A stretch of 64,000 bases of DNA from assembly GCA_001792895.1 (NCBI GenBank), contig MARA01000024.1, positions 577,714-641,713 of the forward strand, written 5' to 3'. Below the pieces are notes generated by a model. The model saw nothing but the letters and a program-made list of their open reading frames with translations, did not search any database and was not told the origin of the DNA. How positions within the stretch are numbered: the first letter of the stretch is position 1; each line of letters begins with the position of its first letter. The translations under genes and the position numbers were made by a program. Source of the DNA: Lentinus brumalis (taxonomy: Eukaryota > Basidiomycota > Agaricomycetes > Polyporales > Polyporaceae). Shown here in pieces: positions 24,871 through 54,680 of the stretch.

Positions 24871-27788
24871 GCAGCTCTGTTCTCATTTTCTGATTGGCAG
24901 CCCGCACTCGCACCCGTTGCTAGCGGCTGTGGTCCACCCGAGAGCCAACACGGTCAGACAGCCGGAACGGGCGAGTGCGGAAGTCGACGACTTGGTGCCC
25001 TCACGCCGGCACCAAGTCCCGACCTCCGCGCTCCCGCATCCCCGCATCCCCGCGCGAGCCCAACATACAGGAATTTCAGAGAACCGGTACGCACATTCTA
25101 AGGAGCCCGCCCGCCTATGCGCTCGTAATTGGGACTCAAGGGCCGCGAGCTCGTGTTCCGAACTTGCCGTGCGCAGCCGTAACCTGGCCGTACACTGTCC
25201 TTGAGACTCGTGCGTGTGCCCTAGACCATTGGCACAGCGGCTCGAAATGGCGGGATGGCGGGAGGGTGGGAGATGGCGTGCGTCGCGCGGGGCCGTGAGT
25301 TCGCGGTGAAACGCGGTTTTGCGACCTCGGCGGATGGGCTTCCGATGCGGTGCGAACGACGGTGATGGTGCGATGCGTGTGCATTTTGAGTTTGAGCGCG
25401 AGAGGACCGCGAGTGGACCGCGAGTGGACACGTGTGGCGGAATTTCACTGGCACGCGTGGCGTAGAGATAGCGGCGATGGGAGGCTTCCCGAACGTCCGA
25501 GAGGAGCTCGCGTAGAGTGCGTGGCGCGGCGGGGGCGAGACGAGGATCGACGCGACGAGCTTCAGTCGTTGTTCGTCGATGTCCGTCTGGCACGAGACGG
25601 CGGGAGATGAGGATGGGGTGTTGATGGATGCTCTTGGGCGCCGTCGCGTCGACCGTCGCGGCGAGATACTGCGGGTGAGCTTACCTGATGGTGCACGGGA
25701 GAAAACGCGCGACGGGGACGCAGATCGCAACGCCTGCGCATATAGCCGGATTATAACATGTTGTGCGCGTCGAACGGGGCTGTTCCCGCGGGGATACGAT
25801 GAGCGGCGGGCGAGGAGTGGGCAATCTTGTGCCGCTGGCGGGAGAGAAGGGGTTGCCGGTGGCGAGGCGCGAGTTGGATACGCGCGAAACGAGCTGGAGG
25901 GGTGCGTACGATTGAGGCGCTGTGTGTGAGGGCGACCTATGCAGTGCAGGACGGTCTGCAGGTGGGGGAGGCCGGTTCGCGGGATATGTGCTTCATGGGA
26001 GCGATTCGGGCATAGGTCGAGGGACGATAGAAGACTGGCGTACGAGAGGGCAGGAAGATGTCGGCGGCGGGTGTATGCGTCACGCAGCGGGGGCTGCTCG
26101 AGAATGCAACGCGTCGCCTGCGTACAGCGGGGTAGAGCCGGGGAGGACGGTGCTGTGTTGTGTGCGTGGGGCAGACTAGACGCACTTGCAGGGTGGACGT
26201 CGGACACGAGAGCAGCGAACGGATGGCGCAGAGAGGAGGGCAGCGGCAGTGAGGGAGCCGTGAAAAGGACGAGCGTGGATTGGCCCAGCAGGATGAACGG
26301 CAAGATTAAGCGAGCGGACTCCTTTCCCGCTCGTGTCGGACGCCCGTTTCCGCCCGGGAGAGCGGGCCGGCCCCGCACACTGTGAACGGCGATGATGATG
26401 CAGCCCACAAGCCTTGTCCCCTACCCCCATCTTCTGCTGACCAGGAGTGTACGTACTTGACGACGTCGAACATGTCTAGCTCCGGGAAGGTCATCTCTGG
26501 AAAGGAGGTCGCTCAGCACAATTCGCGCGAGAGCTGTTGGATAATTGTCCATGGTGAGTGCTGTTCTTGCAGGCCGTCATGGGAAGGGAGACGGGAGAGT
26601 AACTGAGGAGGTCTCCGCACTTTGCAGGCAAGGTTTATGATGTTACGGAGTTCTTGGATGGTGAGGCAGACTCCCAAGGCTCGCCCGTTCGAGACACTGA
26701 GTCTCATGTCGTCCTAAGACCACCCCGGCGGCAGCAAGATAATCCTAAAGTACGCTGGCAAGGACGCCACGTAAGCTTGTTCCTCCAGACGCATATTACA
26801 ACAGACATCTGACAGTCATCACTTCCTAGGGCAGAGTACGACCCCATTCACCCACCGGACGCTATCAAGACGCACCTCCCTCCCGAGAAGCAGTCAGTAT
26901 CTCTGTTCACTCACAGATCAAGTTGTCTAACCAAGCGCTTCGCAGCCTTGGCGATGTCGACCCTCAGACCGTTTTGAAGGTCGAGGTGGAGGTGTCTGAC
27001 CAGGAGAAGGCGCGTATGGATCGCATAGCGAACCGCCCATCACTCTCAGAAATCCTGAACCTACACGACTTCGAGGTGAGTCCTGCGCGACGTGGCCCCG
27101 TCTGTGGGTGCTAACAGGATGCTCGAGGCTATCGCACGAGCCGTGATGCCAGAGAAGGCCTGGGCGTACTACAGCTCTGCAGCCGACGACGAGATCACGA
27201 ACCGCGAGAACCACGCCGCGTACCACAGGATATGGTGGAGACCACGCATCCTGCGCGACGTCACGCACGTGGACTGGTCGACCACGATTCTCGGCCACCC
27301 GTCCAAGATGCCGTTGTACATCGTATGTCGGCTACCTTCCCTGTTCTCTGCTGACATGTGCGCTGACCATGACGTCGCAGACTGCTACCGCGCTGGGCAA
27401 GCTCGGACACCCGGACGGCGAGCTCAATCTGACGAAGGCGGCGGCGAAGCACGGCGTCATCCAGATGGTACGTGGGCTGTGACGCATGTGTCGGCGGTCG
27501 GGAGTCGCTCACCCAAGGCAGATCCCGACGCTCGCCTCGTGCGCGTTCGACGAGCTCGTCGACGCCGCGCAGCCCGGGCAGGTGCAGTTCCTGCAGCTGT
27601 ACGTGAACAAGGACCGCGCGATCACGAAGAAGTTCGTGCAGCACGCAGAGAAGCGCGGGATCAAGGGGCTCTTCATCACGGTCGATGCACCGCAGCTCGG
27701 CCGGCGAGAAAAGGACATGCGGCAGAAGTTCGAGGCCGAGGACCCGGCAGAGGTGACGGGGAACAACCAGGAGAGCAAGGTCGACCGG
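24871..27788 (+). repeat. Segmental duplication, copy A
   Basis: This segment of about 2.9 kb recurs in the same orientation at 33571-36505. The left edge is marked by GCAGCTCTGTTCTC in both; the right edge lies just after GTCGACCGG, inside an exon. It holds about 1.6 kb of GC-rich, CpG-rich DNA and then the 5' exons and introns of a flavocytochrome b2 gene. The gene part, introns included, is nearly identical between copies. The upstream part has more substitutions and many small indels. Long minus-strand open frames in the GC-rich part (up to about 395 codons) are broken by indels in copy B, so I do not call them genes. Confidence 0.9.
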
Positions 27789-27911
27789 TGCATGTACTGG
27801 CGCAGAAGCAATATATCTTGTTCGCCCTCGCGGCCTCGCGCTTGCCGAGATCGTGCATCTAGCCGGGAGGCTGGTAGCCTCGAGGCGCGTGCCAGACTGC
27901 CAGAGAATTAG
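26472..27911 (+). pseudogene. Truncated flavocytochrome b2 gene (cytochrome b5 domain plus N-terminal half of FMN domain)
   Basis: A near-identical partial copy of the gene at 35191-37342. It starts MSSSGKVISGKEVAQHNSRE and keeps the cytochrome b5 domain (DVTEFLD..HPGGSKIILKYAG, with a heme-ligand His). It also keeps the start of the FMN barrel (EKAWAYYSSAADDEITNREN, WWRPRILRDVTHVDWSTTI, KLGHPDGELNLTKAAA, FLQLYVNKDRAITKKFV, GLFITVDAPQLGRREKDMR). After ESKVDR the homology stops at the duplication breakpoint (27788). The frame then runs through unrelated sequence (CMYWRRSN...) to a stop at 27909-27911. The missing part holds the catalytic base and FMN-phosphate residues (LSNHGGRQLD, VDGGVRR, VGVGRPFLYA), so it cannot be a working dehydrogenase. 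Transcription could continue, since the full upstream region was copied too. Confidence 0.9.
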
Positions 27912-33570: not shown

Positions 33571-36505
33571 GCAGCTCTGTTCTCGGATTCTGGACGGCAG
33601 CCCGCAGTCAGTCGCACGTGTCGCTGACGGCCATCGTCCACCCGAAAGCCAACACGGCCAGACAGCCGGAACGGGCGAGTACGGAAGTCGACGACTTGGT
33701 GTCCTCACGCCGGCACCAAGTCCCGACCTCCGACCTTCGCGCTCCCGCATCCCCGCGCAAGCTCAGCATACAGGAGAACCGGTACGCATATCCTGAGACC
33801 GTCCTCGAGGACCCCGCCCGCCTATGCGCTCGTAATCGCCACTTCGCTGGCGGAACCCAAGGGCCGCGAGCTCGAGTTTCGAACTGGTTGTGCGTAGCCG
33901 TAAACTGGCCATACTGTCCTTGAGACCTGTGCGTGTGCCCTACATCGGCACAGCGGCTCGAAGTGGCGGGAGGGCGGGAGGGCGGGAGAGGGCGTGTCGC
34001 GCGGGGCCGTGAATTCGCGATGAAACGCGGTTTTGCGACCTCGGCGGATGGGCTCCCGATGCGGTGCGGACGACCGTGATAGTGCGATGCGTGTGCAGTG
34101 TGCTTGCGAGCGCGAGAGGACGGCGGGGTGGACACGTGTGGCGGACTGTTCACTGGCACGCGTGGCGTAGAGATAACGGCAATGGGAGGCTTGCCGAACG
34201 TCCGAGAGGGATGGTGGCCACAGGGTGCGTGGCGCGGCGGGGGCGGGACGGGGATCGACGCGACGAGGTTAAGTCGTTGTTCGTCGTCGCCCGTCTGGCG
34301 CGAGACGGCGGGATGAGGATGGGGTGTTGATGGATGCTCTTGGGCGCCGTCGCGGCGACATACTGCGGGTGAGCTCACCTGATGGTGCACGGGAGAGAAC
34401 GCGCGACGGGGACGCAGATCGCAACGCCCCGCGACACGGCGCATATAACCGGATTATAACATGTTGTGCGCGTCGAACGGGGCTGATCCCGCGTGGGTAC
34501 GATGAGCGGTTGGCGAGGAGTGGGCAATCTTGTGCCACTGGCCGGAGAGACGGGGTTGCCGATGGCGAGGCGCGAGTTGGATACGCGCGAAACGAGCTGG
34601 AGGGGTGCGTACGAGTGAGGCGCTGTGTGTGAAGGATGCAGCTATGCAGTTGCAGGACGGTCTGCAGGTGGGGGAGGCCGGTTCGCGGATATGTGCTTCA
34701 TGGGGGCGATGTGGGCATAGGTCGAGGGACGATGGAAGGCTGGCGTACGAGAGGGCAGGAAGATGTCGGCAGCGGGTGTATGCGTCACGCAGGCGGGGGC
34801 TGCTCCAGATTGCAACGCGTCGCCTGCGTACAGCGGGGTAGAGCCGGGGAGGACGGTGCTGTGTTGTGTGCGCGGAGCAGAGACGGCGGCTAGGCGCACT
34901 TGCAGGGTGGACGTCGGACACGAGAGCAGCGAACGGATGGCGCACAGAGGAGTGCAGCGAGCGAGGGAGCCGTGAAAAGGACGAGCGTGGATTGGCCGGG
35001 CAGAATGAACGGCAAGATGAAGCGAGCGGACTCCTTCCCTCTCCTTCCCGCTCGCGTCGGACGCCCGTTTCCGCCCGGGAGAGCGGGCCGGCCCCGCACA
35101 CTGTGAACGGCGATGATGTGTGACCACAGGCCTTGTCCCCCACCCCCATCTTCTGCTGACCAGCAGTATACGTACTTGACGACGTCGAACATGTCTAGTT
35201 CCGGGAGAGTCATCTCTGGAAAGGAGGTCGCCCAGCACAATTCGCGCGAGAGCTGTTGGATTATCGTCCATGGTGAGTGCTGTTCTTGCAGGCCGTCATG
35301 GGAAGGGGAAGGGAGAGTGACTGAGGAGGTCTCCGCACTTTGCAGGCAAAGTTTATGATGTTACGGAGTTCTTGGATGGTGAGGCAGACTCCCAAGGCTC
35401 GCCCGTTCGAGACACTGAGTCTCATGTCGTCCTAAGACCACCCCGGCGGCAGCAAGATAATCCTAAAGTACGCTGGCAAGGACGCCACGTAAGCTTGTTC
35501 CTCCAGACGTATGTGACAACAGACATCTGACAGTCGTCACTTCCTAGGGCAGAGTACGACCCCATTCACCCACCGGACGCTATCAAGACGCACCTCCCTC
35601 CCGAGAAGCAGTCAGTATCTCTGTCCACTCACAGATCACGTTGTCTAACCAACCGCTTCGCAGCCTAGGCGATGTCGACCCTCAGACCGTTTTGAAGGTC
35701 GAGGTGGAGGTGTCTGACCAGGAAAAGGCGCGTATGGATCGCATAGCGAACCGCCCATCACTCTCAGAAATCCTGAACCTACACGACTTCGAGGTGTGTC
35801 CTACGCGACGTGCCCCCGTTTGTGGGTGCTAACAGGCTGTTTGAGGCTATCGCACGAGCCGTGATGCCAGAGAAGGCCTGGGCGTACTACAGCTCTGCAG
35901 CCGACGACGAGATCACGAACCGCGAGAACCACGCCGCGTACCACAGGATATGGTGGAGACCACGCATCCTGCGCGACGTCACGCACGTGGACTGGTCGAC
36001 CACGATTCTCGGCCACCCGTCCAAGATGCCGTTGTACATCGTATGCCGGATACCTTCCCTGTCTCTGCTGACATGTGCGCTGACCATGACGTCGCAGACT
36101 GCTACCGCGCTGGGGAAGCTCGGACACCCGGACGGCGAGCTCAACCTGACGAAGGCGGCGGCGAAGCACGGCGTCATCCAGATGGTAAGTGGGCTGTGAC
36201 GCATGTGTCGGCGGTCGGGAGTCGCTCACCCAAGGCAGATCCCGACGCTGGCCTCATGCGCGTTCGACGAACTCGTCGACGCCGCGCAGCCCGGGCAGGT
36301 GCAGTTCCTGCAGCTGTACGTGAACAAGGACCGCGCGATCACGAAGAAGTTCGTGCAGCACGCAGAGCAGCGCGGGATCAAGGGGCTCTTCATCACGGTC
36401 GATGCACCGCAGCTCGGCCGGCGAGAAAAGGACATGCGGCAGAAGTTCGAGGCCGAGGACCCGGCAGAGGTGACGGGGAACAACCAGGAGAGCAAAGTCG
36501 ACCGG
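33571..36505 (+). repeat. Segmental duplication, copy B
   Basis: Second copy of the segment described at 24871-27788, in direct orientation and offset by about 8.7 kb. Here the right edge lies inside an uninterrupted flavocytochrome b2 gene. Copy B therefore probably holds the ancestral gene arrangement and copy A arose by partial duplication. Confidence 0.9.
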
Positions 36506-37342
36506 TCGCAGGGCGCTGCACGTGCCATCAGCGTACGTCGTCTCAGCACGTCTATGTGCTCCTGCTCACAGTGACACGGTGATAGTCCTTCATCGACCCC
36601 GGCTTGGACTGGAAGGACATCCCCTGGTTCCAGAGCATCACCAAGAGTGAGTCGGACGCTCGCTAGTCAGACTGCACGCAACTGAACCGCCCGCCAGTGC
36701 CGCTCATCCTCAAGGGCGTCCAGTGCTGGGAAGACGCTCTGCAAGCTTACGACCTGGGGCTCGCCGGCGTGGTGCTCTCCAACCACGGCGGCCGGCAGCT
36801 CGACTTCTCGCGCTCGGGCATCGAGGTGCTCGTCGAGGTCGTCCGCGAGCTCCGCGCGCGGCGCGGGCTCTCGTTCCCGAACGAGAAGTTCCAGCTGTTC
36901 GTCGACGGCGGGGTGCGCCGGGCCAACGACGTCCTCAAGGCTGTCGCGCTCGGGGCGACCGCGGTCGGCGTGGGGCGCCCGTTCTTGTACGCGTTCTCGT
37001 CGTACGGGTTCGAGGGCGTCGACCATGCGCTCCAGATCCTCCACGTAGGTCGCAACCGTGTCGCATCGACGGTTTTAGTCACTGATGGAGACACTTCCAG
37101 GATGAATTTGAGATGAACATGCGTCTGCTCGGCGCTCGGACGCTCAAGGAGGTCGTGCCCGAGATGGTCGACGCGTCGTCGTTGCAGTCCCACATCGTGG
37201 CTGTCCCCGGTGACCGGCTGTACGACTCGAACTGTGCGTGCTCTCTTCCGTAGTTTCCTCGAGAGCTGGTACTGACGCAAGTGTGGTGGTAGACGAGAGC
37301 ATGCAGCACGCTCGGCTGCGGGAAGTCAAGTCGAAGATGTAG
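35191..37342 (+). CDS. CYB2: Flavocytochrome b2-type L-2-hydroxyacid (lactate) dehydrogenase, complete copy, C-terminal SKM
   Basis: Cytochrome b5 domain fused to an FMN-dependent alpha-hydroxyacid dehydrogenase barrel; known members oxidise L-lactate and pass electrons to cytochrome c. Spliced exons give SGKEVAQHNSRESCWIIVHG, KVYDVTEFLDDHPGGSKIIL and a linker HLGDVDPQTVLKVEVEV. The barrel follows with EKAWAYYSSAADDEITNREN, FLQLYVNKDRAITKKF (the Tyr matches Tyr254 of yeast CYB2), LFITVDAPQLGRREKDM, the active-site Lys in LILKGVQCWEDAL, the catalytic His and Arg in LSNHGGRQLD, FVDGGVRRANDVLKA and VGVGRPFLYAFSSYG. The C-terminus is ARLREVKSKM-stop. The protein starts directly at the b5 domain (MSSSGRVISG), with no presequence like that of yeast CYB2, and SKM is a plausible PTS1. 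Peroxisomal location is therefore inferred. About nine introns are needed. Confidence 0.92.
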
Positions 37343-37805
37343 ACTGGTGCAGAAGTACCATTTCGTCGTCATATATCCCTGGAATCTCATGATTGCTTCG
37401 TCCGTCTTGAGTAGTGCATACCTGTATATTTCATGTACTTGTGTCGCCTGTGACAGCAACCTAGCTCTCAGAACATGCAAGGCACCCATCCTGCGTCCGT
37501 GAACAGAAGTGCAGAAATGTCGTCTATGTTGAGCATTGTCATCGTAAGGTTACAACTACCACAATCAAAGCAGAGGGGAGGGGTACTAGCGGCAACATAT
37601 ATAGGTTAATCATACGTGCATGGTATGGTACTAAGGTGGGTGGGTGGGAGTGGGTGGACAGTCCGCATGGCTACAATCGACTCGTCTAAGTATACTGCTT
37701 CATTATTTGCTATACTTGTCGTTCCAACGTGATAATTAACCAGAAGCACACACAAAAAATCCCAAGAGAGAAGAAAGTCAGAAACGTCAGGCCAGGCAGG
37801 CACGC
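37343..37805. other. Convergent 3' spacer
   Basis: Lies between the ends of the flavocytochrome b2 gene and the arrestin-like gene on the other strand. It is AT-richer, as expected for two 3' UTRs; no gene is seen. Confidence 0.55.
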
Positions 37806-40574
37806 TCAATATCTCGCGACGGAGGCGGGCAAACCCACCACGACCGGCACGGGATGGGCCGCCTCCACCGCCGCCTCGTACGACGGTGGCGCCTCGCCCT
37901 CCTCGGTCTCTTGCCCGGCGATGAGCCGCTCGAAGAGCTCCGGGGTCGTGCGCTCCTGGAACGACTGTCTGCGCGAGAGCGGCGGGCTGATGACGGTCGC
38001 AGTCGGACTGATGTGCTGCTCGCTGCTGGTCGGCAGGGAGTCGACGGACTGGTCGGACATCGGATGGGCGGGGTTTCCCGGAGACCGTCCACGTCCGGAG
38101 AGCGAGCTCGTGGTCGAGGACGCGTGTGCCGCGAGCGCGAACGTCGACACGGATCGTCGCTGGGCGAAGCTGGCGGCAGGCGCGCCGAGGTCGACGGTCG
38201 TGGGCGGGCGAGTGCAGATGTCGCCGTCCGAAACGACGCTTAACGGGACATGGGGAGGAATGGCGTTGGGGACCTGCGAGTATGGAGGGAGGGCGGTGTG
38301 CTCGGGGTTGCAGAGGTGCTACAAATTTATCGTCAAAAACCAGACGAACTCTCTTAAGACCTGGAGACTTACCGAGAGGATATGTACAGGCGTCTGCACG
38401 ACGATATCGAAGAGCTTCCGCTTCCCTGTCTGCGGATCGACGGCGCTATCGTCCCCTCGTTCGACCCGGAATATGATCTTCAACATGTGCGAGACTGAGA
38501 TGTTACTCCTCTTGTTCTTGTTGGTCGTGTGGAGTGTACCCTCGGCCTTCGGCAAGTGAAGCTCCTTGCGGATTGTCCACGGGCCAGGACCCATGAAGCT
38601 GGACACGGTCTCTGAGACATCGTCCTCCGGGTTGAGAACCTCGTTGAGCGGGGACTGCCTGAAGGCTTCCGGATCGTCCGTGGTCAAAGGCAGGAGAGCG
38701 GGGCCGTCCTTTTTGGGATACTTGAGCGCAAGAAGAGGTACTCTGTTGATAGGGTCTGTGCGTGCGACGCGTCTGAACCCGGTCCAGTAGTCGACCCGCT
38801 CTGAAGGCACACATCAGAAATGGCGATGCAATGCGCAAAACGTCGAGGCCATACCTTCAATCAGTACGGATATTCGGTGAATCTTCATTTTCGTCCACGG
38901 CATGAATGTGATGCTGACGGGCATTGTGCCTCCGATGGCAAAGCTTCGTCCGGATATCATGATGAGGTATTGCATCTGCGTATCCCACTGTCGCTCGACC
39001 ACGATACTCTCCGATTCCTCCGTGTCATCTTCACCGGGCGTCGTCACGACCGTGATGTCTTGCGACGCGGTTAACTTCTGTTTGAATGCGCCAGGGCGGT
39101 GTACGACGGCCTTGAGTTTCCACGTCACTGAACCGTAGTCCACGTGTAAACTCGGTGGGGAATTCGCGGGGATAGTGAACGAGACCGGATATGTGTATAC
39201 GCCTATACGCTTTGTTGGCACCATGAAGCAACGAAAAGATGAGCGACGCACCTTTTCGGAACTCCTTCCACCCGTCTCCATGCTCTTGGCCGTCTTCCAC
39301 TTCCAAACCCACCGCCTCTGCAACACGTCCGAGAGCGGAGCGTTCCTTGAGCGGGGTCCCTGCAGTATCCCCGGATTCGAAGAACGCTCGGTCCCTGGTA
39401 CGCCCACGCGGAGGCGTGATATCGCCGCCCCGCTCGACCATGGGAGAGCGTGACCGCACCCGATCCTTCATCGCTTCGAAAAAGGCGCTGGCGAAAGAGA
39501 ACTTCCCCTTGCGGCCCCGCACAGTATCGTCCCCTTCGCCATCTCTCTGTCGCGAAGGCGTGCGCCCGTCCCGCCCTAGCGAGTGCGATGGCCCTGCGTG
39601 TTGAAGATGCGACGTGCTGCTCCCGACCTGGAACTCGCGATCATCGTCGAAGCTAACACGCCGAGAGTCCGGAACCTCTCGCGGAGACCACATTCCGGAT
39701 GACGAGCGTCCCTGCCTGGATGGAGAGCGAGACAGACCTGCGATCGCGCTGCGATGTCAGCCACAATGCCAAGCTCGAACGAGTCACGCCCACCTGTATA
39801 GTACTGTTCCGCCTCCAGTGCGCGGCGCAGGTCTTCGAGGCTGCGCGCTGGAGATTCGTCGTACATGGGCAATGATGACCGGTTGATGATCGACGCTGTT
39901 GGGCTGACAAGGACAGTATCCTCCTGGGAATAGGTGGGGGTGTACGGCGGAGAAGCCACGGGAGGGTGATAGCCATTGTCGTGATGTGAAACGAAGGAAC
40001 GCTGGTAGTGAGTCTGGTCCACGCTCATGTGGCGACGTCGTGGTCTCCGGACAGTAGCGGCATCGCGAGGTGGAGGGGAACGCCCGCGGCTCCCGTCTCT
40101 GGACTCATCGTGTTGCATGTAACTTGACCGCTCGGAGTGATCTTCGTCCTCGTGCTCGAGTGCCAACCCCGGACCGACGGAGACGTTGCGACGAAACCCT
40201 GACCCCGGGGCGTGACCGGCGCGAAAGAACACATATGACTGGGAGTAAATGTCGTGTTCCTCCGTGATCTCTATACGGCGCGCACCAACGCCTGGACATG
40301 GTTAAGATAACGCCAAGTGCGGTATGATAGATAAGAGCGTACCTTCGGGCCATGCCGTTACCGTCCTCCCTACGAGCTCGACTTCGATGCTGGTGATGCG
40401 CGTGGGCTTCGCCAAGGTCAACACGAGCAGCCCGCGGACCATACCAGGCGAAGCGTCGGCCTGCATGGTCCTCTGTCGGCCAGTGGCGTCTCCGGCGCGG
40501 AGGAAGACGACAGACTCTGCAAGACGGATGTCGAGGGCATTCTTGCTGGGAGCGGGCTTGGTCGATGTGGGCAT
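37806..40574 (-). CDS. Arrestin-related trafficking adaptor (ART) with PPxY motif
   Basis: Alpha-arrestin-like adaptor; relatives recruit the Rsp5/Nedd4 ubiquitin ligase to plasma-membrane transporters for endocytosis. Spliced from the minus strand, the arrestin N-domain begins NALDIRLAESVVFLRAGDA, then VRGLLVLTLAKPTRITSIEV and VELVGRTVTAWPEG. After an intron come IEITEEHDIYSQSYVFFRAG and a long Ser/Arg-rich insert. The C-domain has VYTYPVSFTIPANSPPSLHV, TWKLKAVVHRPGAF and GTMPVSITFMPWTKMKIHRI. Later exons add ERVDYWTGFRRVARTDPINR and RKELHLPKAEG. The C-terminal tail contains EGEAPPSYEAAVEAA, a PPxY motif for WW domains, plus ALPPYSQVP. Short introns at about 39750-39800 (after QYYTG) and 39200-39255 (after EFRKG) restore the frame. 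Start 40574 (MPTSTKPAPSKN) is the best ATG. No lesion was seen. Confidence 0.88.
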
Positions 40575-41975
40575 GTATGGATGGTGGTCGTCGGAAGAGA
40601 AGGGCAGATAGCTCAATGTACCGCACCGTCCTCGAGACCGATCGAGACTCCAGCCGCCAATCGTTCCTGAATTCATTTTTTGTTCGATACGGTCCGGAGG
40701 CAACCCCGACATTAGGGTTAGGGTATATAACCGGTAATTGCGTCATTCCGACTCATTTGCTGTGCAGACCGCGCACGTTGGAAGTTTTCGAGCTCCCTCT
40801 TGCTGGAATCCGGAACGCAAATAATGTGTTACTAGCTGCAGGACATCTCGAAGACCAATATTGTCAGGACCGGCAGCCATACGCACAAACTGCGCAGGTA
40901 CTTACTGGTAGTACTACTGTAAGGCGCACCTGGCGACCACACCACGGAGGACCTCATCAGTTGAGTCAGAAATTCACGGACGGCCGGACCCAGGGAAAAG
41001 GGAAAAGACGGAGATCCGGGCGTATAGACACATGGAGGGTGAGCGTATCAAGTAGCGAATTTGAAACTCAGCTACGTCTTCGCGATATTAACCTCGAGGA
41101 GCGCAGTGTGCACCGTCCTGATCTGGCAACATTTCAGCCGAATCTGGACAGCCCGACGCATCGAGGATAGGACCCGTCGATCGAGGAGAGACTCAGACTG
41201 CTTCAAGCTCTCGACTTGGACGCCGAGCGAGTCGATGTCATTGCTAGGGACACGCCGGACTAAGCCAGACCCAATAGTGGTTCTCGGCGTAGTCTGACCA
41301 CGAAATCCAGGTGAGTACTCTCCACTAGACATCCAGGTACTTAGTCAACTTATGTGAATGCAGGAGCATCAAGTGTCCCGGTCGGGAGTTGATGACATCG
41401 AGATGTAAGTACTCTGCACGTGTTTCCCAGATATTTGCAGCTCACCAGTGCAGCCTACCAAGCTCGCACAGCGAGGAACGCGACGGAACTGTGCATCAAG
41501 TTGAGACTCTCGCGATCTAGTGACACACTGTGGTGGGCGCTGTGCGCCCCAGTATCCAGCGCTGTAGCATCGCGCGCCGTTGGGCGTGAGGTCACCACGG
41601 CCACTGCTCCCGAAGTCAGTCTTCTCGTGCCATACAAGGCGCAACTTGGACCGTGGCCCTATGCTCATAGGTCTTGGGGACGACCACCGTGACATTTTCG
41701 GTTTGTATAATTCTTTGTATGTGGCGTCGTCACACTACTTTGTGGACTAGAATCTTGAACTATACCAGAGGGGCGTGTGGGTGGTCAGCGCGGACTATGG
41801 GAAGCATCATCGCGTGCGACCGATCGGGCACCGCCGACGACGCGCCCTTGCAGATGCTGCTTGGGTGCTTCAGTCGGAAGTTGAGGGTCAGCGCAAGGTC
41901 ATCCGCCGACTTCCCTCCTCTGTTCTGTCTTTCTTCGTTTATGCTTTCTGTACCGTCCATTCCCAGAGGCTGATC
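40575..41975. other. Upstream region of the ART gene and unassigned interval
   Basis: Holds a telomere-like motif (40712-40723) upstream of the ART gene, then splice-signal-rich DNA. One coding-like piece is at 41171-41263: after a TAG acceptor the frame reads DPSIEERLRLLQALDLDAER then VDVIARDTPD-stop. Another, EHQVSRSGVDDIE, lies near 41362-41405 between CAG and GTAAGT. These may be micro-exons of an unrecognised gene or non-coding RNA. No family can be assigned. Confidence 0.4.
40712..40723 (-). promoter_or_regulatory. Two telomere-type repeats (telobox-like) upstream of the ART gene
   Basis: TTAGGGTTAGGG on the plus strand (CCCTAACCCTAA on the gene strand), about 140 bases upstream of the ART start and next to GTATATAA. 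Telobox motifs are known protein-binding sites in fungal and plant promoters. Function here is inferred, and chance occurrence is possible. Confidence 0.35.
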
Positions 41976-43339
41976 ATGACAACCGGTGCTCTATCAGCTA
42001 ACAACTTACACTCCTTGACCGTCGTAGTTGACGACGTCCACATGCACTACTCTACAATATCTCGCGAGAGGCTGCGCAGTCGCCTCCACACTCTGCAAAC
42101 CTCGACGCTTTTGTCTCTCAGGCCAACGAGAAAGCGTGGAACAACACTTCGACGGTGATCACTGCGCCGAGTGTGAGCTTCTGGTACAACTTCACCGGTA
42201 AGTGGCGAACACATGGCTTGCTGTGGAACTCGGACCTCACACGTGTCATCAAGGTTACAGTCGTGTCGCTGTGTACGGCTCGATCAACACTTGGGCCGGC
42301 GTACCCTATACAGCATGGGCGAACTACTCGATCGGAGGAGAGTACACCGCAGGAAACATCACGGGTGCACCCAAAGTCGTCACCGACTACCCTCTCTTCG
42401 TGTCGAGTGTCCTCCAACCGGGGAAGTTGTACAACCTCACTGTCGAAGTCTCCGCATCTCCCGACGCCCCCTTTGTCCTCGACTACGTCTTAGGATACCA
42501 ACAGCCCGCCCCCACTCCCATTGGCGCTTCCAGCAGCAGCTCCTCCCCGGGCTTCCCGGTGGGTGCACTGGTCGGAGGCTTGGTGGGAAGCATAGCGCTG
42601 TTGATCATCTTTGTGGCCGTCCTCGTTTACTGCCTGCTGCGACGTCAGAGGCGCAAGCTCGGCTGGACTGGTGCGTGTCACCATCACTGCGTGCCAGTGG
42701 AGAGGATCATGCTCACCACGAGTGATTCCGCCAGTAAAACCACTTGATGGCGAATTTTCGCCTATCACGACGTCGCCGAACACCTCTGGGTCCTACATGA
42801 GGGATACCTCCATCTCTATCTCTACTTCGACCGTGCGATCCCCTTCCACCCCTATTGATTCGCGCTATACGACCATGTCTGGGCACACATCGTCCCGGGT
42901 CGACTCGCGTTCCCGGCCGGATATGTCGGCCCACACTCGGTCATCGTCACAACTTCCGCTTCTCTCCAGTACCAACTCCCCACCAGTGCCGGTGACGGAC
43001 CCGGTTGGAAGGGCCAATGTAAATGTGCCCCAAGTCGAGGAGCCTCTCTACAACCCCTACGAGCTCCTCCCGGCTCAGCATGTCCCTTCTTCGTCAATCG
43101 TGCCGCCGTCCATGGCAGTCACAAAGCTGCCTGCTCCCGTGTCGACTCAGGCAGGAACGTCAGCGGTCATCGAGCTGGGTCCTAACGGTTATCCTATTGA
43201 GAAGCGACGCGAGCTCCGGATGGAGCCTGAGAAGAAACGACTGTACCCTGCCAATCCCGACATAGTCGGATCCTCATCTGGTGGTGGAGATGCATCGAAG
43301 GAAGGATCTTCCGCTAGCCCGCCCGCATATGGTACATGA
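41976..43339 (+). CDS. Single-pass membrane protein with glycosylatable ectodomain and Ser-rich cytoplasmic tail
   Basis: Resembles a basidiomycete family of putative surface sensors with no assigned function. The ectodomain begins VVVDDVHMHYSTI, followed by WNNTSTVITAPSVSFWYNFT, joined by an intron to YSRVAVYGSINTWAG, then AWANYSIGGEYTAGNITGAP and KLYNLTVEVSASPDAPFVLD. Several N-x-S/T sites are present. A Ser-rich linker (GASSSSSSPGFPVGAL) leads to one transmembrane helix (GSIALLIIFVAVLVYCLL), immediately followed by the positive stop sequence RRQRRK. After a further intron the cytoplasmic tail is Ser/Pro/Thr-rich with PVKPLDGEFSPITTSPNTSG and ends EGSSASPPAYGT. No clear signal peptide was found at the start chosen (MTTGALSANN), so the true 5' end may lie in an upstream exon. 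Confidence 0.7.
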
Positions 43340-43544
43340 TCTGGTCTGAGGTGAATACGTTGCTACTAGTATTGGACTTGAAGGACAAGACGATTTGCCA
43401 TTGCGCTTGGACATGATTTCCAATCGATGTATGAGGGGGTAACTGGTATACTGTATTGGACGCGGCACGGTGATGGACAGAGCGGACGGTACAGATAACG
43501 ATGGACAGGCAACCCAAGATCCGGAGCTGCACGAGAGAGACGAA

Positions 43545-45758
43545 TTACAACTTCGCATTCCGGAACTGAGCGAGAGCGAGAGGCTGATCTGTCGAACGGT
43601 CAGTGTCAATCATGGAACTGACATACACTCGAATGGGCAGAACTTACAGGTGTTAGTGAACAGGTTGTCTTGCGGCGTCATGACGAAGTGCGACGTCAGG
43701 GAGCTCGCATCCACCATGTCCGGCACAACCTCGTCGATCGTGCGTGCGCCCAGTAGCCGCATGTTCATCTCGAACTCGTCCTATCGCACGACGTTTGAGC
43801 TCACCGCGGAAACAAACAGAGTACGCCAGACTCACCCGGAAGATCTGTATGGCCTTCTCGACGCCTTCCTGGCCGTACGCGCAGAACGCGTACAAGAACG
43901 GCCGGCCGACGCCGACAGCCTTCGCGCCAAGTGCAATCGCCTTGAGGACGTCACTTGCGCGGCGCACGCCTCCGTCCACGTAGATCTCGAACTTGGGATC
44001 CGGGAAGTAGCCGCGCAGCCTGAGCGCCGTGACGACCTCGACGAGAACCTCGATGCCGGAGCGCGCTGTGTCGAGCTGGCGACCGCCGTGGTTGGAGAGC
44101 ACGATTCCCTGAACACCGGCCTCGTACGCCAGCACAGCGTCCTCGGCAGATCCGATGCCCTTCAGGATGATAGGCACTGCCAAGATGCCCGCGTCAGTGA
44201 ACACACTCGCAAACCGGACAAACATGGAGCCACCCTCACTCTTTGTGATGCTCTTGAACCAGGGGATGTCCTTCCATGACAGGCTGGGGTCGATGAACGA
44301 CTGCGCGTAGCGGTTCAGTATTCTGATGATCGTGCCCGGACCGATACTGCCAAGCGACGACACTCACACTGATGGCTCGTGCGACTCCTTGGTCCTTCTT
44401 GACTCCGTCCTGGCCCTTCTGCACTTCAGCACCTGCGTCGTCGTCGACGTGCTTCATCCGCATATCCTTCTCCCTGCGGCCAAGCTGGGGCGCATCGACG
44501 GTGATGAAGAGCCCCTTCACCCCGCGCTTTTCGGCGTGCTGCACGTACTTCCGGGTGATCTCCCGGTCGCGGTTGACGTATCTGACGGTGCGTGGCTCGG
44601 TTAGTGGACTCAGCCCGACAGCGGGCGGGAGAGCATCGGCACGCACAATTGGAGGAAGAAAACCTGCCCAGGGGCCGCGGCGTCGATGATATCGTCGAAC
44701 GAGCACGATGCAAGCGTCGCGATCTAGGCACCAGGTCAGGCACTGTGCCACAGACAGGATTAGACGTTAGGCATACCATTTGGATGACACCGTGGTTCGC
44801 TGCAGCCCGTGTCAGGCACAGCTCGCCGTCTGGGTGGCCAAGTTTGCCCAGAGCAGTCGCCGACTGTCCAAACAAGGTGAACATCATGCCAAACTGTACT
44901 CGGAGATGGCGACTCACGATGTAGACAGGAAGCGTCGACTTCTGGCCAAGGATTGTTGTCGACCAGTCGACCGAGGATACGTCGCGGAGGATACGAGGGC
45001 GCCACCAGACACTGGAGAAGAATAACGATAATTCAGCTACAGGCGGTATATGCACTTCCGTGTCGAGCCGTACCGCTGATAAGCCATGCGATTCTCCCGA
45101 ATGGTGATTTCATCGTCCGACGCAGACGAGTAGTATGCCTACGAGAACCGGAGATACATTGCTTCAGCGAGTCGAGTGTTTCATTAAATCGACAAGACGT
45201 ACCCAAGCCTTCTCTGGAAGCACAATCTTCGCAACATTCTCGAAGTCGTGTAAGTTGATGATGTTGTCGAGGGGTGGGCGGGCGTCCAGCAGAGCTTGTC
45301 TGTGCTTCTCTTCTTCGGTGACCTCCTTGACCACCTTGGCCACGGTGCTAGCATCAATGACGCCCAGGCTGGACGGAGGAATCCGCTCAGTAATCGGTCG
45401 GGGCGAAATGGAGGCGTGGACGTACTGCTTCTGAGGCGGGAGGTTAGTGGTGATGGCGTCCGGGGGATGGATAGGCTCATATGCTTCGCTATATCCCAGG
45501 AGCGATGATTATGTCGTGTGCACTGCGGTAATGCTATTCACTCACGTCGCGTCCTTGCCAGCATACTTCAAGATGATCTTGCTACCCCCTGGGTGCTCTA
45601 AGGCGGTGTCAGCAGAGCACGGAGGCGTTCACTAAGAGAGATGTACCATCCAGGAAGTCGGTGACGTCGTATACCTTCCCGTGCACGATGATCCAACAGC
45701 TCTCCCGGCTGGCGTGCTCCGCAACTTGAGGCCCGGTGAGGACACGGATGTCAGACAT
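43545..45758 (-). CDS. Flavocytochrome b2-type L-2-hydroxyacid dehydrogenase, diverged paralogue, C-terminal AKL
   Basis: Third flavocytochrome b2 gene, on the opposite strand and clearly diverged from the duplicated pair. The cytochrome b5 domain reads GPQVAEHASRESCWIIVHGK and VYDVTDFLDEHPGGSKIILK; the linker includes SLGVIDASTVAKVVKEVTEE. The barrel has EKAWAYYSSASDDEITIREN, WWRPRILRDVSSVDWST, KLGHPDGELCLTRAAANHG, LQLYVNRDREITRKYVQHAE and LFITVDAPQLGRREKDMRMK. It continues with VPIILKGIGSAEDAVLA, LSNHGGRQLDTARSGIEVL, YVDGGVRRASDVLKAIALG and VGVGRPFLYAFCAYG. The last intron (GTAAGT...GACAG at about 43577-43645) joins NLFTNT to YQPLALAQFRNAKL-stop, so the protein ends in AKL, a good PTS1. It starts at the b5 domain (MSDIRVLTGP) without a presequence. 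All catalytic residues are present and no frame break was found. Confidence 0.92.
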
Positions 45759-48576: not shown

Positions 48577-49924
48577 ATGCCGGGCCTCGATCTCTTCAGC
48601 TCTTCAACTCCCTCTGCTACCACCACCATCGTCGAGGTGCCCGTTGCAGAGGTCTCTGTACCCCGTCCGGAGGTCGAGGTGAAGGAGCCGACAACTTCAA
48701 ACCAGGTCGTCGCCGTGCCCCGTGGCCTTGCACCGCCGGCACCATACTACAACCCTCGCCTCGACCCCAAGAACTTCCTTGAGGGCCCCCTCTCATGGAA
48801 CCCCGCAACTCGGCTACGGCAGATGCTCGCACGCCCGGGCATTGTGGTATGTGTTCGCCGATCCTTTTTCTACAATGGCAGCACCGTAACTGACCGCTGT
48901 TCTTACAGGTTGCCCCTGGAATCTGCGATGGCATCAGTGCACGCTGTGCTCTGGAAGCCGGCTTCGACTGCCTGTACCAGAGGTCGGGCTTGTCATTCAT
49001 TCTCCTTGACCAATATACTGACACCACCGTTTTAGCGGCGCCGCTACGACCGCTTCCCGTCTCGGACAACCCGACCTCGCCATCGCGACGCTGAACGATT
49101 TTGTCCAGTCTGCGCAGATGGTCTGCTCCCTCGACCCCACCGTTCCCGTCATCGCGGACGCAGACACCGGCTTCGGTGGACCAGCCATGGTTGCCCGCAC
49201 CGTCACGCAATACGCACGGTCCGGCGTCGCCGCCTGCCACATTGAAGACCAGGTCCAGACTAAGCGCTGCGGTCATCTCCTCGGGAAGCAGGTCGTCTCC
49301 CGCGAGGAGTTCGTCACCCGCATCCGGGCGGCCGTCATTGCGCGCGACGCCATCCCGGGCGGGTCGGACTTCGTCATCATCGGCCGCACGGACTCTGCGC
49401 AGGTCCTCGGGATGGAGGAGGCTCTCATCCGCCTGAGGCTCGCGGCAGACGCGGGTGCGGATGTCTGCTTCATCGAGGGCGTGCGTACCTCCGAGCTGCT
49501 CAAGTCGACGGTAGCGGCGCTCGCGCCGAAGCCGGTGCTCGTCAATGTCATCTCCGGTGGCCTCACGCCGTCCTTCACGACGAAGGAGGCTGAGGAGTAC
49601 GGTGCGAAGATCATCAGTAAGTCTGCCGTCCCGTATTGGTGCGAAATCTTGCTGAGTTGAGCTTCTTCATAGTCTTCTCGCTTGTGAGCTGCGTCGCGGC
49701 TGTTCACGGCATTCGAGCTGCGATGGCGTCGCTCAAGAAGACTGGCACGGACTTCTCGAGCGCGAAGGGGATGGACCCGAAGGCGTTCTTCGAAGTCATG
49801 GGTGAGCTACCTTACACCTTGTTGCACTAACAGAAATTCCTTACTGATCCCAATCACCACAGGTCTCAGCGATGTCGTCAAGCTCGATGCTCAAGCAGGC
49901 GGCAAGGCGTTCGAGGTTGTATAG
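48577..49924 (+). CDS. Isocitrate lyase/PEP mutase superfamily lyase (oxaloacetate hydrolase or methylisocitrate/dimethylmalate-lyase-like)
   Basis: TIM-barrel enzyme of the ICL/PEP-mutase superfamily, which makes or breaks C-C or C-P bonds in 2-oxo or hydroxy acids. A disordered N-terminus is followed by LSWNPATRLRQMLARPGIV and, after an intron, VAPGICDGISARCALEAGFD. The Mg2+-binding motif is PVIADADTGFGGP; then come ACHIEDQVQTKRCGHLLGKQ, with the lyase-type catalytic Cys in KRCGH, and FVIIGRTDSAQVLGMEEALI. Further on are ADVCFIEGV and KPVLVNVISGGLTPSFTTKE, and short final exons end GLSDVVKLDAQAGGKAFEVV. KRCGH points to a lyase or oxaloacetase rather than a phosphonate mutase. Oxalate-producing fungi use an oxaloacetate hydrolase from this group, but I cannot place this protein reliably. 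Four introns are visible, with no obvious targeting signal. Confidence 0.87.
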
Positions 49925-52251: not shown

Positions 52252-54680
52252 ATGGAGAGAGTATATCGGTTCCCCGCTGCCGCTTTCCTCGACACATTCG
52301 CCCCCGATGAGTCCACCCCGAGCGCTGACCACCAGGCCCAACAACCACTGCACACGCCGAAGCACACTGAAGCTGCTCGTGACTTTGATGAAGTTGACAT
52401 TGGAGAACCTGACGACCTATGGGATTACTCCTTTGTTCGTCCCAGATCATCAATTTCTTCCCTGTGACCGCTAACAACGTCTAACCACCCTAGGTCGAGG
52501 CGTTCAACACCATCAAACCCACAATCTGTCCCGAACACACCCTGGTCATGTCCAAAGACGGAGAAGACATGTTCGGTGCCCTCTACAACGACGGCGACGA
52601 CGTGCCAGACGACAACACCGATGCGGTGTGGGGCCTCATCGAGGCTTGCGTCCTCTTCTTCGAGCAGGACGATGACCCGTTCGCCCCGGACGACAGTACA
52701 CGCCGCATGTCTAAAGCCTTTGCTCGGGCCCAAGACGAGAACCGAGCCTACGTATCGATATTTGTGTCGCGCGTACTGGCTCGACAGCAGCACACCCACC
52801 TATTCCTCGTCGTTGTTTGCGGCGCCAGCGCCCGCATCGTCCGCGCCGACCGCGAAGCGTTCTTCGTAACGCATCCATTTACCTACAAGACCAGCCCTAC
52901 ACAGAGCATCCTCCGTGAATTCTTCCGACGGTTCACGGAGATGGACCGAGCCGAACGCGGTATCGACACCACCGCGAAGTTGCTGAGATGCAAGCGCGGG
53001 ACCGGGTACACCAGCGAGCGGGTCTCGTTCATGCGCCAGATGGCCAACGGCACACTGGACGGAGCAGCGGATCATGCGCGGATGTGCTTCGAGGAGAGCT
53101 TGGACGATGACTGGCCGTGGTACTCCGTGACGGTCCAGGGGCTCGAGTTCCTCATCGCGAAGCCCGCGGCATACTCCGATAAGCCCAGTCGTGCATCCCG
53201 CGGCTACATTGCACTGTGCTACAGCATGTGCCCCCACCACGGCACGTTCGTCTGGCTCAAGGATACCTGGCGCAGGATCCTTGATGACGAGTACGAGCAA
53301 GAGGGTGCCGTGCTGTCTGACCTCAACCGGCATAGGGTGGAGTACGTACCGACGCTGGTATGTCACGGAGACGTATCCAGTCACCGTCTCGATGTCAAGG
53401 GGACGCTTGCTCGCCTGTGCAAGCAGGGGCCGAAGCCTGCGAGGTCCCGGGTCGAGCGTGTCCACTACCGGGTGGTCACACAGGAGGTCGGACTGCCGAT
53501 CGACGAGTTCAGGAACAGCAGAGATCTCGCTGTCGTGTTCCGCGATTGCTTGGAAGGTTCGTCTGGCAGGCGTTGTCTTTTCTTCGTTTGAGAGGCTGAC
53601 CTTTACACAGCACATCGGAGTGCATACAAACGGGCGAAAATCCTACACCGTGATCTCAGCGAAGGAATCTGCTGATGGTTCCTTATGATGCCTACTTCGA
53701 AGACGGTGCCGGTATCGCGTACAGAGGAATGCTCATTGATTGGGAGTACGGCGAACGCGTATCTAGACGATCCGCTCCGGGCTTCGTTTACCGTGTTGAT
53801 CGTCGAGTGAGTGACACTACAGCCTATGCACTGGTCTGTTTAGTCGATTCTGATATCCGCTGTGACACAGGGAACCTGGGACTTCTTGTCCGTCAAAGCC
53901 CTGAACCACCCGGAGGACCCTGTCATGCCAGCGGACGAGTTCGAGTCGTTCCTTCACATCTTCACATCTCTCGGCCTCTCGTATCTGCGGCACAGCTGCA
54001 AGAACCCCGTCCAGTTCGACAAGGAGTACTTCGCGACGCAAACGATTGACAACGTCACCCGGGCATCGGCACTCAAGGAGCGCTGCATGAGGCATGGCCG
54101 CCTGTTCGTATCTGTGGAGGGCAATGCGAGGTTGGAATTCCTCAAGGAGACGCGGAAGAAGCTGCCCCGTTGCCGAACCGTGGTGACAAGGCTGGTGCCA
54201 CACCCCATCAACCGCGTTTTCACATCGTGGCTCGCTTTGATTAGGGAGCGCTATGCTCCGGAGAAAGAGCTCGACGCACAGTCCCCCCCGATGGTACCTC
54301 GGCCAGTGGCTCCTTCTGCCAAGGAGAACGTCTCCCCTCGCAAGGCGCCGGCTCCGCATCGGGCTCACACATCACCACTCGCTTGCCTCGAGTTGAACGT
54401 CGACGTCCCTTTCTCAGACTCATTGGACTCTGATGATGACGAGGACTCTGAAGTCGCACTTCACGATGCGATGATTGAGATCCTGTCAGACGCCATCGAG
54501 CATAGCTTCTGGCCCCCGCTGGACAAGACATCGGACCAATTGGAGGTGGAGGAAGAGGAGCTGGAGGATGACAAGCTAGAGGAGCGACTCGAGGTGCGGC
54601 AATGTCTGAGCGATGACGAGGACGACAACAGTCCTTCGACTGACTGCGACCGTCCCAACAAGAGGCGCAGGATAGGTTAA
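52252..54680 (+). CDS. FunK1-type fungal protein kinase, copy 4 (frameshift in catalytic loop)
   Basis: A FunK1 gene clearly diverged from copies 1-3. The start at 52252 (MERVYRFPAAAFLDTFAPDE) parallels the N-terminal region of copy 3. An intron joins DLWDYSF to VEAFNTIKPTICPEH. The main exon contains EQDDDPFAPDDSTRR, CGASARIVRADREAFFVTHP, YIALCYSMCPHHGTFVWLKD, YVPTLVCHGDVSSH and VTQEVGLPIDEFRN. The next exon reads HRSAYKRAKILHRDLSEG and then breaks at 53664-53668. GGAATCTGC gives a stop two codons later; one more A would continue as N-LLMVPYDAYFEDG in the next frame. The later part is GMLIDWEYGERVS in the DFG region, GTWDFLSVKALNHP and FLHIFTSLGLSYLRHS. A strongly acidic stretch (VEEEELEDDKLEERLE) and NKRRRIG at the end could be a nuclear signal. 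It may be a recent pseudogene or a one-base sequence error. Confidence 0.88.

What the first reader, a model, noticed from the sequence alone, without database searches (positions are those of the whole stretch)
35191..45758. Flavocytochrome b2 paralogues appear addressed to peroxisomes (SKM and AKL ends, no presequence)
Seen: both intact genes start directly at the cytochrome b5 domain and end in SKM-stop (37342) and AKL-stop (43545, after a last intron). Known: yeast CYB2 has a long presequence and works in the mitochondrial intermembrane space; SKL-like tripeptides are PTS1 signals. Inference: these are peroxisomal b5-fused hydroxyacid dehydrogenases, perhaps acting on glycolate, lactate or longer 2-hydroxy acids. 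The electron acceptor would then be unclear, because cytochrome c is absent from peroxisomes.
Basis: partly seen in the sequence, partly recalled or inferred. Interest (0 to 1): 0.75.

Follow-up and report, generated by a model that had tools for sequence, protein, structure and literature searches.

The report
Peroxisome-tagged glyoxylate dehydrogenase genes beside oxalate gene
Two genes of a wood-decay mushroom make haem-and-flavin enzymes that carry a peroxisome address tag; one matches the known oxalate-making enzyme glyoxylate dehydrogenase, and it sits next to a gene for a second oxalate-making enzyme, an arrangement that a number of mushrooms appear to share.

Summary
Gene A (+, 35191-37342, 508 aa) ends SKM; gene B (-, 45758-43545, 502 aa) ends AKL after a last intron; both start at the cytochrome b5 domain. 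Gene B is identical to a deposited Polyporus arcularius protein named glyoxylate dehydrogenase (GLOXDH). Of 222 relatives, 154 end in a canonical PTS1 and 204 in a relaxed one; in a control family 0 and 4 of 120. Peroxisomal addressing is well supported but not new: a review places GLOXDH in peroxisomes, and a 2026 paper shows Pex5-dependent peroxisomal import of Histoplasma Cyb2. Gene B's likely product is oxalate from glyoxylate; yet its catalytic and main pocket residues equal those of yeast Cyb2, which itself oxidises glyoxylate, so sequence cannot separate glyoxylate from lactate. The more interesting result lies outside the finding: 2.8 kb from gene B, divergently oriented, is an oxaloacetate acetylhydrolase-type (OAH) gene, the other oxalate-forming enzyme. 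The pair shares a contig in 23 of 26 species compared; all three genes do in 7 of 8. I found no printed mention of this linkage in the passages I read; most of that literature is not held here. The acceptor of the electrons stays unknown.

The parts
35191..37342 (+). Gene A: cytochrome b5 + FMN_dh protein, 508 aa, 12 exons (35191-35272, 35346-35378, 35437-35488, 35548-35610, 35664-35793, 35846-36040, 36098-36184, 36239-36532, 36586-36646, 36698-37044, 37101-37233, 37293-37342), ends SKM
   Evidence: Models; Pfam Cyt-b5 and FMN_dh; relatives
37331..37342 (+). Gene A C-terminal SKM codons (37331-37339) and stop (37340-37342)
   Evidence: tails of relatives
43545..45758 (-). Gene B: glyoxylate dehydrogenase type, 502 aa, 13 exons, ends AKL
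   Evidence: 100% identical to P0001, which carries Cyt-b5 and FMN_dh domains; best solved relatives are yeast flavocytochrome b2
43545..43588 (-). Last exon of gene B, after a 59-base intron; gives the tail ending AKL (codons and stop 43545-43556)
   Evidence: same tail in P0001
48577..49924 (+). Oxaloacetate acetylhydrolase-type gene (PEP mutase/isocitrate lyase superfamily), 371 aa, 5 exons, ends EVV without PTS1; divergent from gene B, 2818 bases between the coding starts
   Evidence: (100% identical to P0223)
26472..27792 (+). Copy C: truncated duplicate of gene A exons 1 to part of 8 (2 residue differences over the 303 shared, then cut), without the second half of the FMN domain and without the tail; lies in a 24871-27792 duplicate of 33571-36510 (91% identity)
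38322..39467 (-). Arrestin-like gene pieces between genes A and B; no sign of a role in the pathway

Best explanation
Genes A and B encode flavocytochrome b2-type enzymes (haem b5 domain plus FMN 2-hydroxyacid dehydrogenase domain) that have no mitochondrial presequence and are imported into peroxisomes by Pex5 through a C-terminal PTS1. Gene B is glyoxylate dehydrogenase: it oxidises glyoxylate, made by isocitrate lyase in the glyoxylate cycle, to oxalate, passing electrons from FMN to haem b and then to an acceptor that is cytochrome c in the test tube and unknown in the organelle. Gene A is a paralogue with the same kind of tail and the same catalytic residues; I think it most likely oxidises a short 2-hydroxy acid (L-lactate or glycolate) or glyoxylate. 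Gene B belongs to a locus with an oxaloacetate acetylhydrolase-type gene, so two routes to oxalate lie side by side. Shown here: gene structure, tails, conservation of tails, conserved residues, linkage. Inferred: import, substrate, acceptor, role of the linkage.
For: Gene B is identical to a deposited protein named glyoxylate dehydrogenase, and about 60 of the 99 B-type rows carry that name by my count of the printed names. F. palustris GLOXDH was assayed on glyoxylate with cytochrome c (PMC9485241, passages). A review and a transcriptome paper place GLOXDH in peroxisomes (PMC11045627, PMC7735643, passages). Tails are conserved and absent in the control family. Histoplasma Cyb2 is punctate and loses this without Pex5 or with its C-terminus blocked (PMC13343957, section 8). 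Haem ligands H43 and H66 and Y143, Y254, D282, R289, K349, H373, R376 of yeast Cyb2 are kept in A and B and in nearly every relative. The neighbouring gene is of an oxalate-forming family, and the linkage recurs in other species.
Against: No localisation or enzyme assay exists here for these two proteins. Pocket residues A198, L230 and L286 are the same as in yeast Cyb2, and yeast Cyb2 oxidises glyoxylate about as well as FpGLOXDH, so the substrate is not readable from the active site; position 228 (Ser in Cyb2, Pro in A-type, Pro or Ala in B-type) does differ, with unknown effect. Some relatives have weak or no PTS1 (LKL, QKL, GKL). Databases name many relatives L-lactate dehydrogenase (cytochrome) or mitochondrial cytochrome b2. 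The neighbour gene's family lacks what I take for the ascomycete OAH serine marker.
Confidence: 0.75

Rival explanations
1. Both proteins are peroxisomal L-lactate (or glycolate) dehydrogenases; glyoxylate oxidation is a side activity and the name glyoxylate dehydrogenase was spread by annotation. This fits gene A better than gene B.
For: Catalytic residues and pocket residues A198, L230, L286 equal those of the lactate enzyme Cyb2; yeast Cyb2 has glyoxylate activity although it serves lactate use in vivo (recalled).
Against: The B-type gene is linked to an oxalate-forming gene in most species compared, its family includes the enzyme characterised as GLOXDH in F. palustris, and the B-type branch is well supported with a long stem (99/100, 0.38).
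Confidence: 0.3
2. The enzymes are partly cytosolic: the PTS1 is weak or slow, giving dual location, and cytosolic enzyme reaches cytochrome c or another acceptor near mitochondria.
For: 50 of 222 relatives match only the relaxed formula, such as PKL or TKL, and 18 match neither; weaker PTS1 motifs give dual location in published cases (PMC12316961, passages).
Against: Gene B ends AKL and gene A SKM, both canonical by the published formula.
Confidence: 0.2
3. These are ordinary mitochondrial intermembrane-space flavocytochromes b2, and the tails are accidental.
For: Homology over about 490 residues to yeast Cyb2; some relatives are named 'Cytochrome b2, mitochondrial'.
Against: No presequence in the window genes or in nearly all relatives; tail conservation far above controls.
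Confidence: 0.05

Closest known systems
Glyoxylate dehydrogenase (GLOXDH) of Fomitopsis palustris and other wood-rot fungi
   Same: b5 plus FMN_dh architecture, same family (Fomitopsis serialis and F. schrenkii proteins 85% and 84% identical to gene B, ending SKL), reported as peroxisomal
   Different: Gene A is a separate paralogue outside the GLOXDH branch; the F. palustris sequence itself was not aligned here
Yeast flavocytochrome b2 (Cyb2, PDB 1fcb)
   Same: Same two domains; same haem ligands, catalytic residues and pocket residues A198, L230, L286
   Different: Yeast Cyb2 has a mitochondrial presequence (recalled) and its chain ends EDA without PTS1; A and B lack a presequence and have a PTS1; positions 97 and 228 differ
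Histoplasma capsulatum Cyb2 (G217B_8374)
   Same: Named L-lactate cytochrome c oxidoreductase and shown in peroxisomes through the Pex5 route (PMC13343957, section 8)
   Different: It has no recognisable PTS1, whereas A and B have canonical ones; its sequence was not compared here
Plant/animal glycolate oxidase (HAO)
   Same: FMN 2-hydroxyacid enzyme, the spinach entry named peroxisomal; its FMN domain aligns
   Different: The match does not include a b5 domain; it is an oxidase using O2 (recalled)

Membership tests
Flavocytochrome b2 family (b5-fused FMN 2-hydroxyacid dehydrogenase) | N-terminal cytochrome b5 domain fused to FMN_dh domain | tested here: met
   Gene A: PF00173 11-81 and PF01070 123-472; gene B: same domains listed for the identical P0001, aligned to 1fcb over 8-500
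Flavocytochrome b2 family (b5-fused FMN 2-hydroxyacid dehydrogenase) | Haem-ligand histidines and catalytic Tyr/Asp/Lys/His/Arg | tested here: met
   residue roles recalled
Mitochondrial flavocytochrome b2 (CYB2 proper) | N-terminal mitochondrial/intermembrane-space presequence | tested here: not met
   No presequence in A or B as modelled; starts conserved in relatives. No transcript evidence
Glyoxylate dehydrogenase (GLOXDH) | Sequence membership of the clade named GLOXDH | tested here: met
   Gene B: and branch 99/100. Gene A lies outside that branch, so for gene A it is not met
Glyoxylate dehydrogenase (GLOXDH) | Oxidises glyoxylate to oxalate with cytochrome c as acceptor | not testable with these tools
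   Reported for F. palustris; needs purified protein
PTS1 cargo | C-terminal canonical tripeptide conserved in orthologues | tested here: met
   154 of 222 canonical, 204 of 222 relaxed; control 0 and 4 of 120
PTS1 cargo | Pex5-dependent import | not testable with these tools
   Shown for Histoplasma Cyb2 in PMC13343957, not for these proteins
Oxaloacetate acetylhydrolase (neighbour gene) | PEP mutase/isocitrate lyase superfamily, close to known OAH | tested here: met
   The T. versicolor gene next in accession to GLOXDH is reported 88.1% identical to F. palustris OAH (PMC10512323), and an F. palustris OAH was assayed on oxaloacetate; neither sequence was aligned here
Oxaloacetate acetylhydrolase (neighbour gene) | Active-site serine marker of oxalate-producing strains (position 281 in PMC3256194, passages) | tested here: inconclusive
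   At the serine of the Cryphonectria chain 3lye that I take for the marker (recalled), 120 of 120 relatives have Thr; basidiomycete OAHs may not follow the marker, or the family may not be true OAH

The most novel reading that the evidence does not exclude
Across Agaricomycetes there is a conserved oxalate locus: peroxisomal GLOXDH and cytosolic OAH genes kept side by side, with a third, unrecognised member (gene A). The peroxisomal enzymes became oxalate makers not by changing the flavocytochrome b2 active site but by changing its address, from mitochondria (lactate) to peroxisomes (glyoxylate), and gene A supplies glyoxylate or shares the step.
Probability: 0.3. Interest if true: 0.65.

Novelty: new member of a known kind. 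Interest (0 to 1): 0.42.

Why it matters
Oxalate made by wood-decay fungi matters for wood decay chemistry and metal binding. If the two oxalate routes share one conserved locus, their joint regulation can be tested directly. If address rather than active site sets the substrate, it is a clean case of function by location, and it makes the identity of a peroxisomal electron acceptor a sharp question.

Tried and rejected
Considered and rejected: accidental tail (control and internal rates); hidden presequence (from DNA and annotated relatives only); an active-site signature for glyoxylate (ten sites separate A-type from B-type, none among the catalytic residues I listed). Position 228 and position 97 differ from Cyb2; I could not judge their effect. 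A second, peroxisome-tagged cytochrome c as acceptor: one cytochrome c match was found in the genome (E 7.8e-4, exon by exon) and its end was not modelled, so this stays open. A presequence-bearing Cyb2 elsewhere in the genome: the other b5-fused FMN_dh gene that I found (contig C60) also starts at the b5 domain and its last exon ends SRL; its later middle exons were not resolved. Structure prediction of the gene B protein (mean pLDDT 74.3, residues 477-502 below 50) only says that the tail is not confidently folded. The tree has 15 of 38 inner branches starred, long Cyb2 and C60 rows and a midpoint root for drawing only, so A-type being ancestral is an inference.

Results against the locus idea: A and GLOXDH are on different contigs in 13 of 35 species, all of them Mycena, Lentinula, Collybiopsis, Moniliophthora or Stygiomarasmius; GLOXDH and OAH in 3 of 26 (Auriscalpium, Lentinula edodes, Pleurotus djamor); A and OAH in 8 of 27. 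Expression is mixed: both genes lower on wood in T. versicolor; both among genes upregulated between decay phases in R. placenta FPRL280 and both up at the first harvest points on unmodified and WPG4 wood in another R. placenta study; rising together on glucose but diverging on lignocellulose in I. lacteus; diverging on cedar in G. trabeum.

Counts dropped or flawed: one search used formulae of my own; with published formulae replaces it. In one search one contig length (P0116) was mistyped; one search repeats the table by species and leaves out P0111, P0116, P0120, rows without a species name and rows without a contig. One of the 23 GLOXDH-OAH pairs (Scleroderma) has two species names under one contig length; without it the count is 22 of 25. 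The window's own species is one of the 23. The lists hold only the best 120 hits of each search, and contig lengths are those of the longest contig of a 90% cluster. The codon count did not run because the two lengths differed; one search repeats it (13 silent and 2 residue changes over 303 shared codons). An earlier count gave one of these positions as 259; one search shows 258.
Full report
What is there. The window lies on contig C54 of a 53.4 Mb genome. Gene A has 12 exons and 508 codons and ends SKM; gene B has 13 exons and 502 codons and ends AKL after a 59-base intron. Gene B is 100% identical to P0001, named glyoxylate dehydrogenase of Polyporus arcularius HHB13444, so its splice model agrees with a deposited one, last exon included. 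Gene A has no same-species row in the listed 120; its nearest relative (94%, Lentinus tigrinus) has the same tail. Neither gene has a presequence as far as DNA and relatives show.

Is the tail more than chance? I split the 222 proteins listed by best BLAST score into 123 A-type and 99 B-type. By formulae quoted in PMC12316961 (passages), 87 of 123 and 67 of 99 end in a canonical PTS1, and 118 of 123 and 86 of 99 in a relaxed one. For the 120 listed relatives of the neighbouring OAH-type protein the counts are 0 and 4; internal tripeptides of the same 222 proteins match at 0.38% and 4.5%. Three relatives from Tulasnella, Clavulina and Ceratobasidium, nearly equidistant from A and B, also end in AKL, so the tag may be older than the split between A and B. 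Eighteen of 222 match neither formula; six of these look like mis-modelled or cut ends, the other twelve are LKL (6), GKL (3), QKL, FKL and ALL.

What it is. Gene A has Cyt-b5 and FMN_dh domains, as has the protein identical to gene B; gene B aligns to yeast flavocytochrome b2 over residues 8-500. Haem ligands and catalytic residues of Cyb2 are kept, as are pocket residues A198, L230 and L286, in A, B and nearly every relative; position 228 is not. In PMC9485241 (passages) F. palustris GLOXDH and yeast Cyb2 oxidise glyoxylate with similar Vmax/Km (0.17 and 0.15, x 10^-4 per second per mg), with cytochrome c as acceptor. So the active site does not tell glyoxylate from lactate. The compartment may: isocitrate lyase makes glyoxylate in the glyoxylate cycle, and GLOXDH is placed in peroxisomes by a review and a transcriptome paper (PMC11045627; PMC7735643; passages). 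That the address sets the substrate is my inference.

What is already known. Peroxisomal GLOXDH is stated in that review. For the wider family, PMC13343957 (section 8) shows Histoplasma Cyb2 in puncta, lost in pex5 mutants or when the C-terminus is blocked. Munir 2001 and Sakai 2006 on F. palustris were not held and are cited only through the review.

The neighbourhood. A PEP mutase-family search of the genome gave its best match inside the window. The gene at 48577-49924 (+) has 5 exons and 371 codons, no PTS1, and is 100% identical to P0223. Its best solved relatives are 2,3-dimethylmalate lyase and Cryphonectria oxaloacetate acetylhydrolase. The Trametes versicolor gene XM_008045015 is reported as 88.1% identical (86.0% coverage) to F. 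palustris OAH, and its accession is next to that of GLOXDH, XM_008045016 (PMC10512323, passages). The coding starts of gene B and the OAH-type gene are 2818 bases apart, divergent. A caution: all 120 relatives have Thr where the Cryphonectria chain has a serine that I take for the published OAH marker (the match of numbering is recalled).

Linkage elsewhere. Using contig lengths and species names, GLOXDH and OAH share a contig in 23 of 26 species named in both lists, A and GLOXDH in 22 of 35, A and OAH in 19 of 27; of the 8 species named in all three lists 7 have all three genes on one contig (the last count read from its lists). Ten of the shared contigs are short (27.7-96 kb), and locus tags are consecutive or nearly so in several, for example Hermanssonia EW026_g4476 (GLOXDH), g4477 (OAH), g4478 (A); Leucocoprinus D9756_005488, 005490, 005491; Cerrena QCA50_005240 and 005241; Taiwanofungus AcW1_003475 and 003476. 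Papers print the same without remark in the parts I saw: Irpex lacteus 0811.538 and 0811.539 (PMC5833081, passages and section 9) and Rhodonia placenta FPRL280_17_38 and _17_43 (PMC10512373, passages). Ten papers in the library hold both enzyme names; I read passages of seven of them and saw no mention of linkage. Much of the wood-rot literature is not in this library, so the linkage may be in print elsewhere.

History. In a tree of 41 proteins the GLOXDH type is a supported branch (99/100) with a long stem; A-type and early-branching proteins form the rest without resolved order. That fits, but does not prove, GLOXDH arising from an A-type ancestor. Copy C is a truncated copy of exons 1 to part of 8 of gene A, with 2 residue changes and 13 silent codon changes over 303 shared codons.

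Rest of the genome. The FMN_dh search found, besides A, B and C, a further b5-fused gene on C60 whose last exon ends SRL, two genes without b5 (C49, whose frame ends AKL; C1, whose frame as read does not end in a PTS1) and a C90 match that reads like IMP dehydrogenase (recalled resemblance). I found no flavocytochrome b2 with a presequence, but the search goes exon by exon and models other than A, B and the OAH-type gene are incomplete.

Verdict. The finding is real and sensibly read; its central claim is largely known. The unexpected part is the apparent conserved oxalate locus and the uncharacterised paralogue A.

Noticed in passing
window 48577-49924: Oxaloacetate acetylhydrolase-type gene divergent from gene B; the two share a contig in 23 of 26 species compared.
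   Followed up: yes
window 24871-27792: Duplicate of 33571-36510 holding exons 1 to part of 8 of gene A and its upstream region, then cut; exons are more alike (898 of 914 bases) than the upstream part (1430 of 1620).
   Followed up: partly
G000 contig C60, 918000-923000 (L017): Further b5-fused FMN_dh gene, last exon ending SRL; substrate-pocket positions differ from Cyb2 (L230 to N, L286 to A).
   Followed up: partly
G000 contig C49, 1802500-1807500 (L016): FMN_dh gene without a b5 match whose reading frame ends AKL, a canonical PTS1.
   Followed up: no
window 38322-39467 (-): Arrestin-like gene between A and B.
   Followed up: no
window 1435-2811 (-), 21839-22987 (+), 52494-53588 (+): Three fungal-type protein kinase (PF17667) reading frames in one window.
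   Followed up: no
G000 contig C22, 1073-1655: Second OAH-type match near the start of a contig.
   Followed up: no
OAH relatives P0223-P0342: All 120 have Thr at the position aligned with a serine of the Cryphonectria OAH chain that I take for the published marker.
   Followed up: partly
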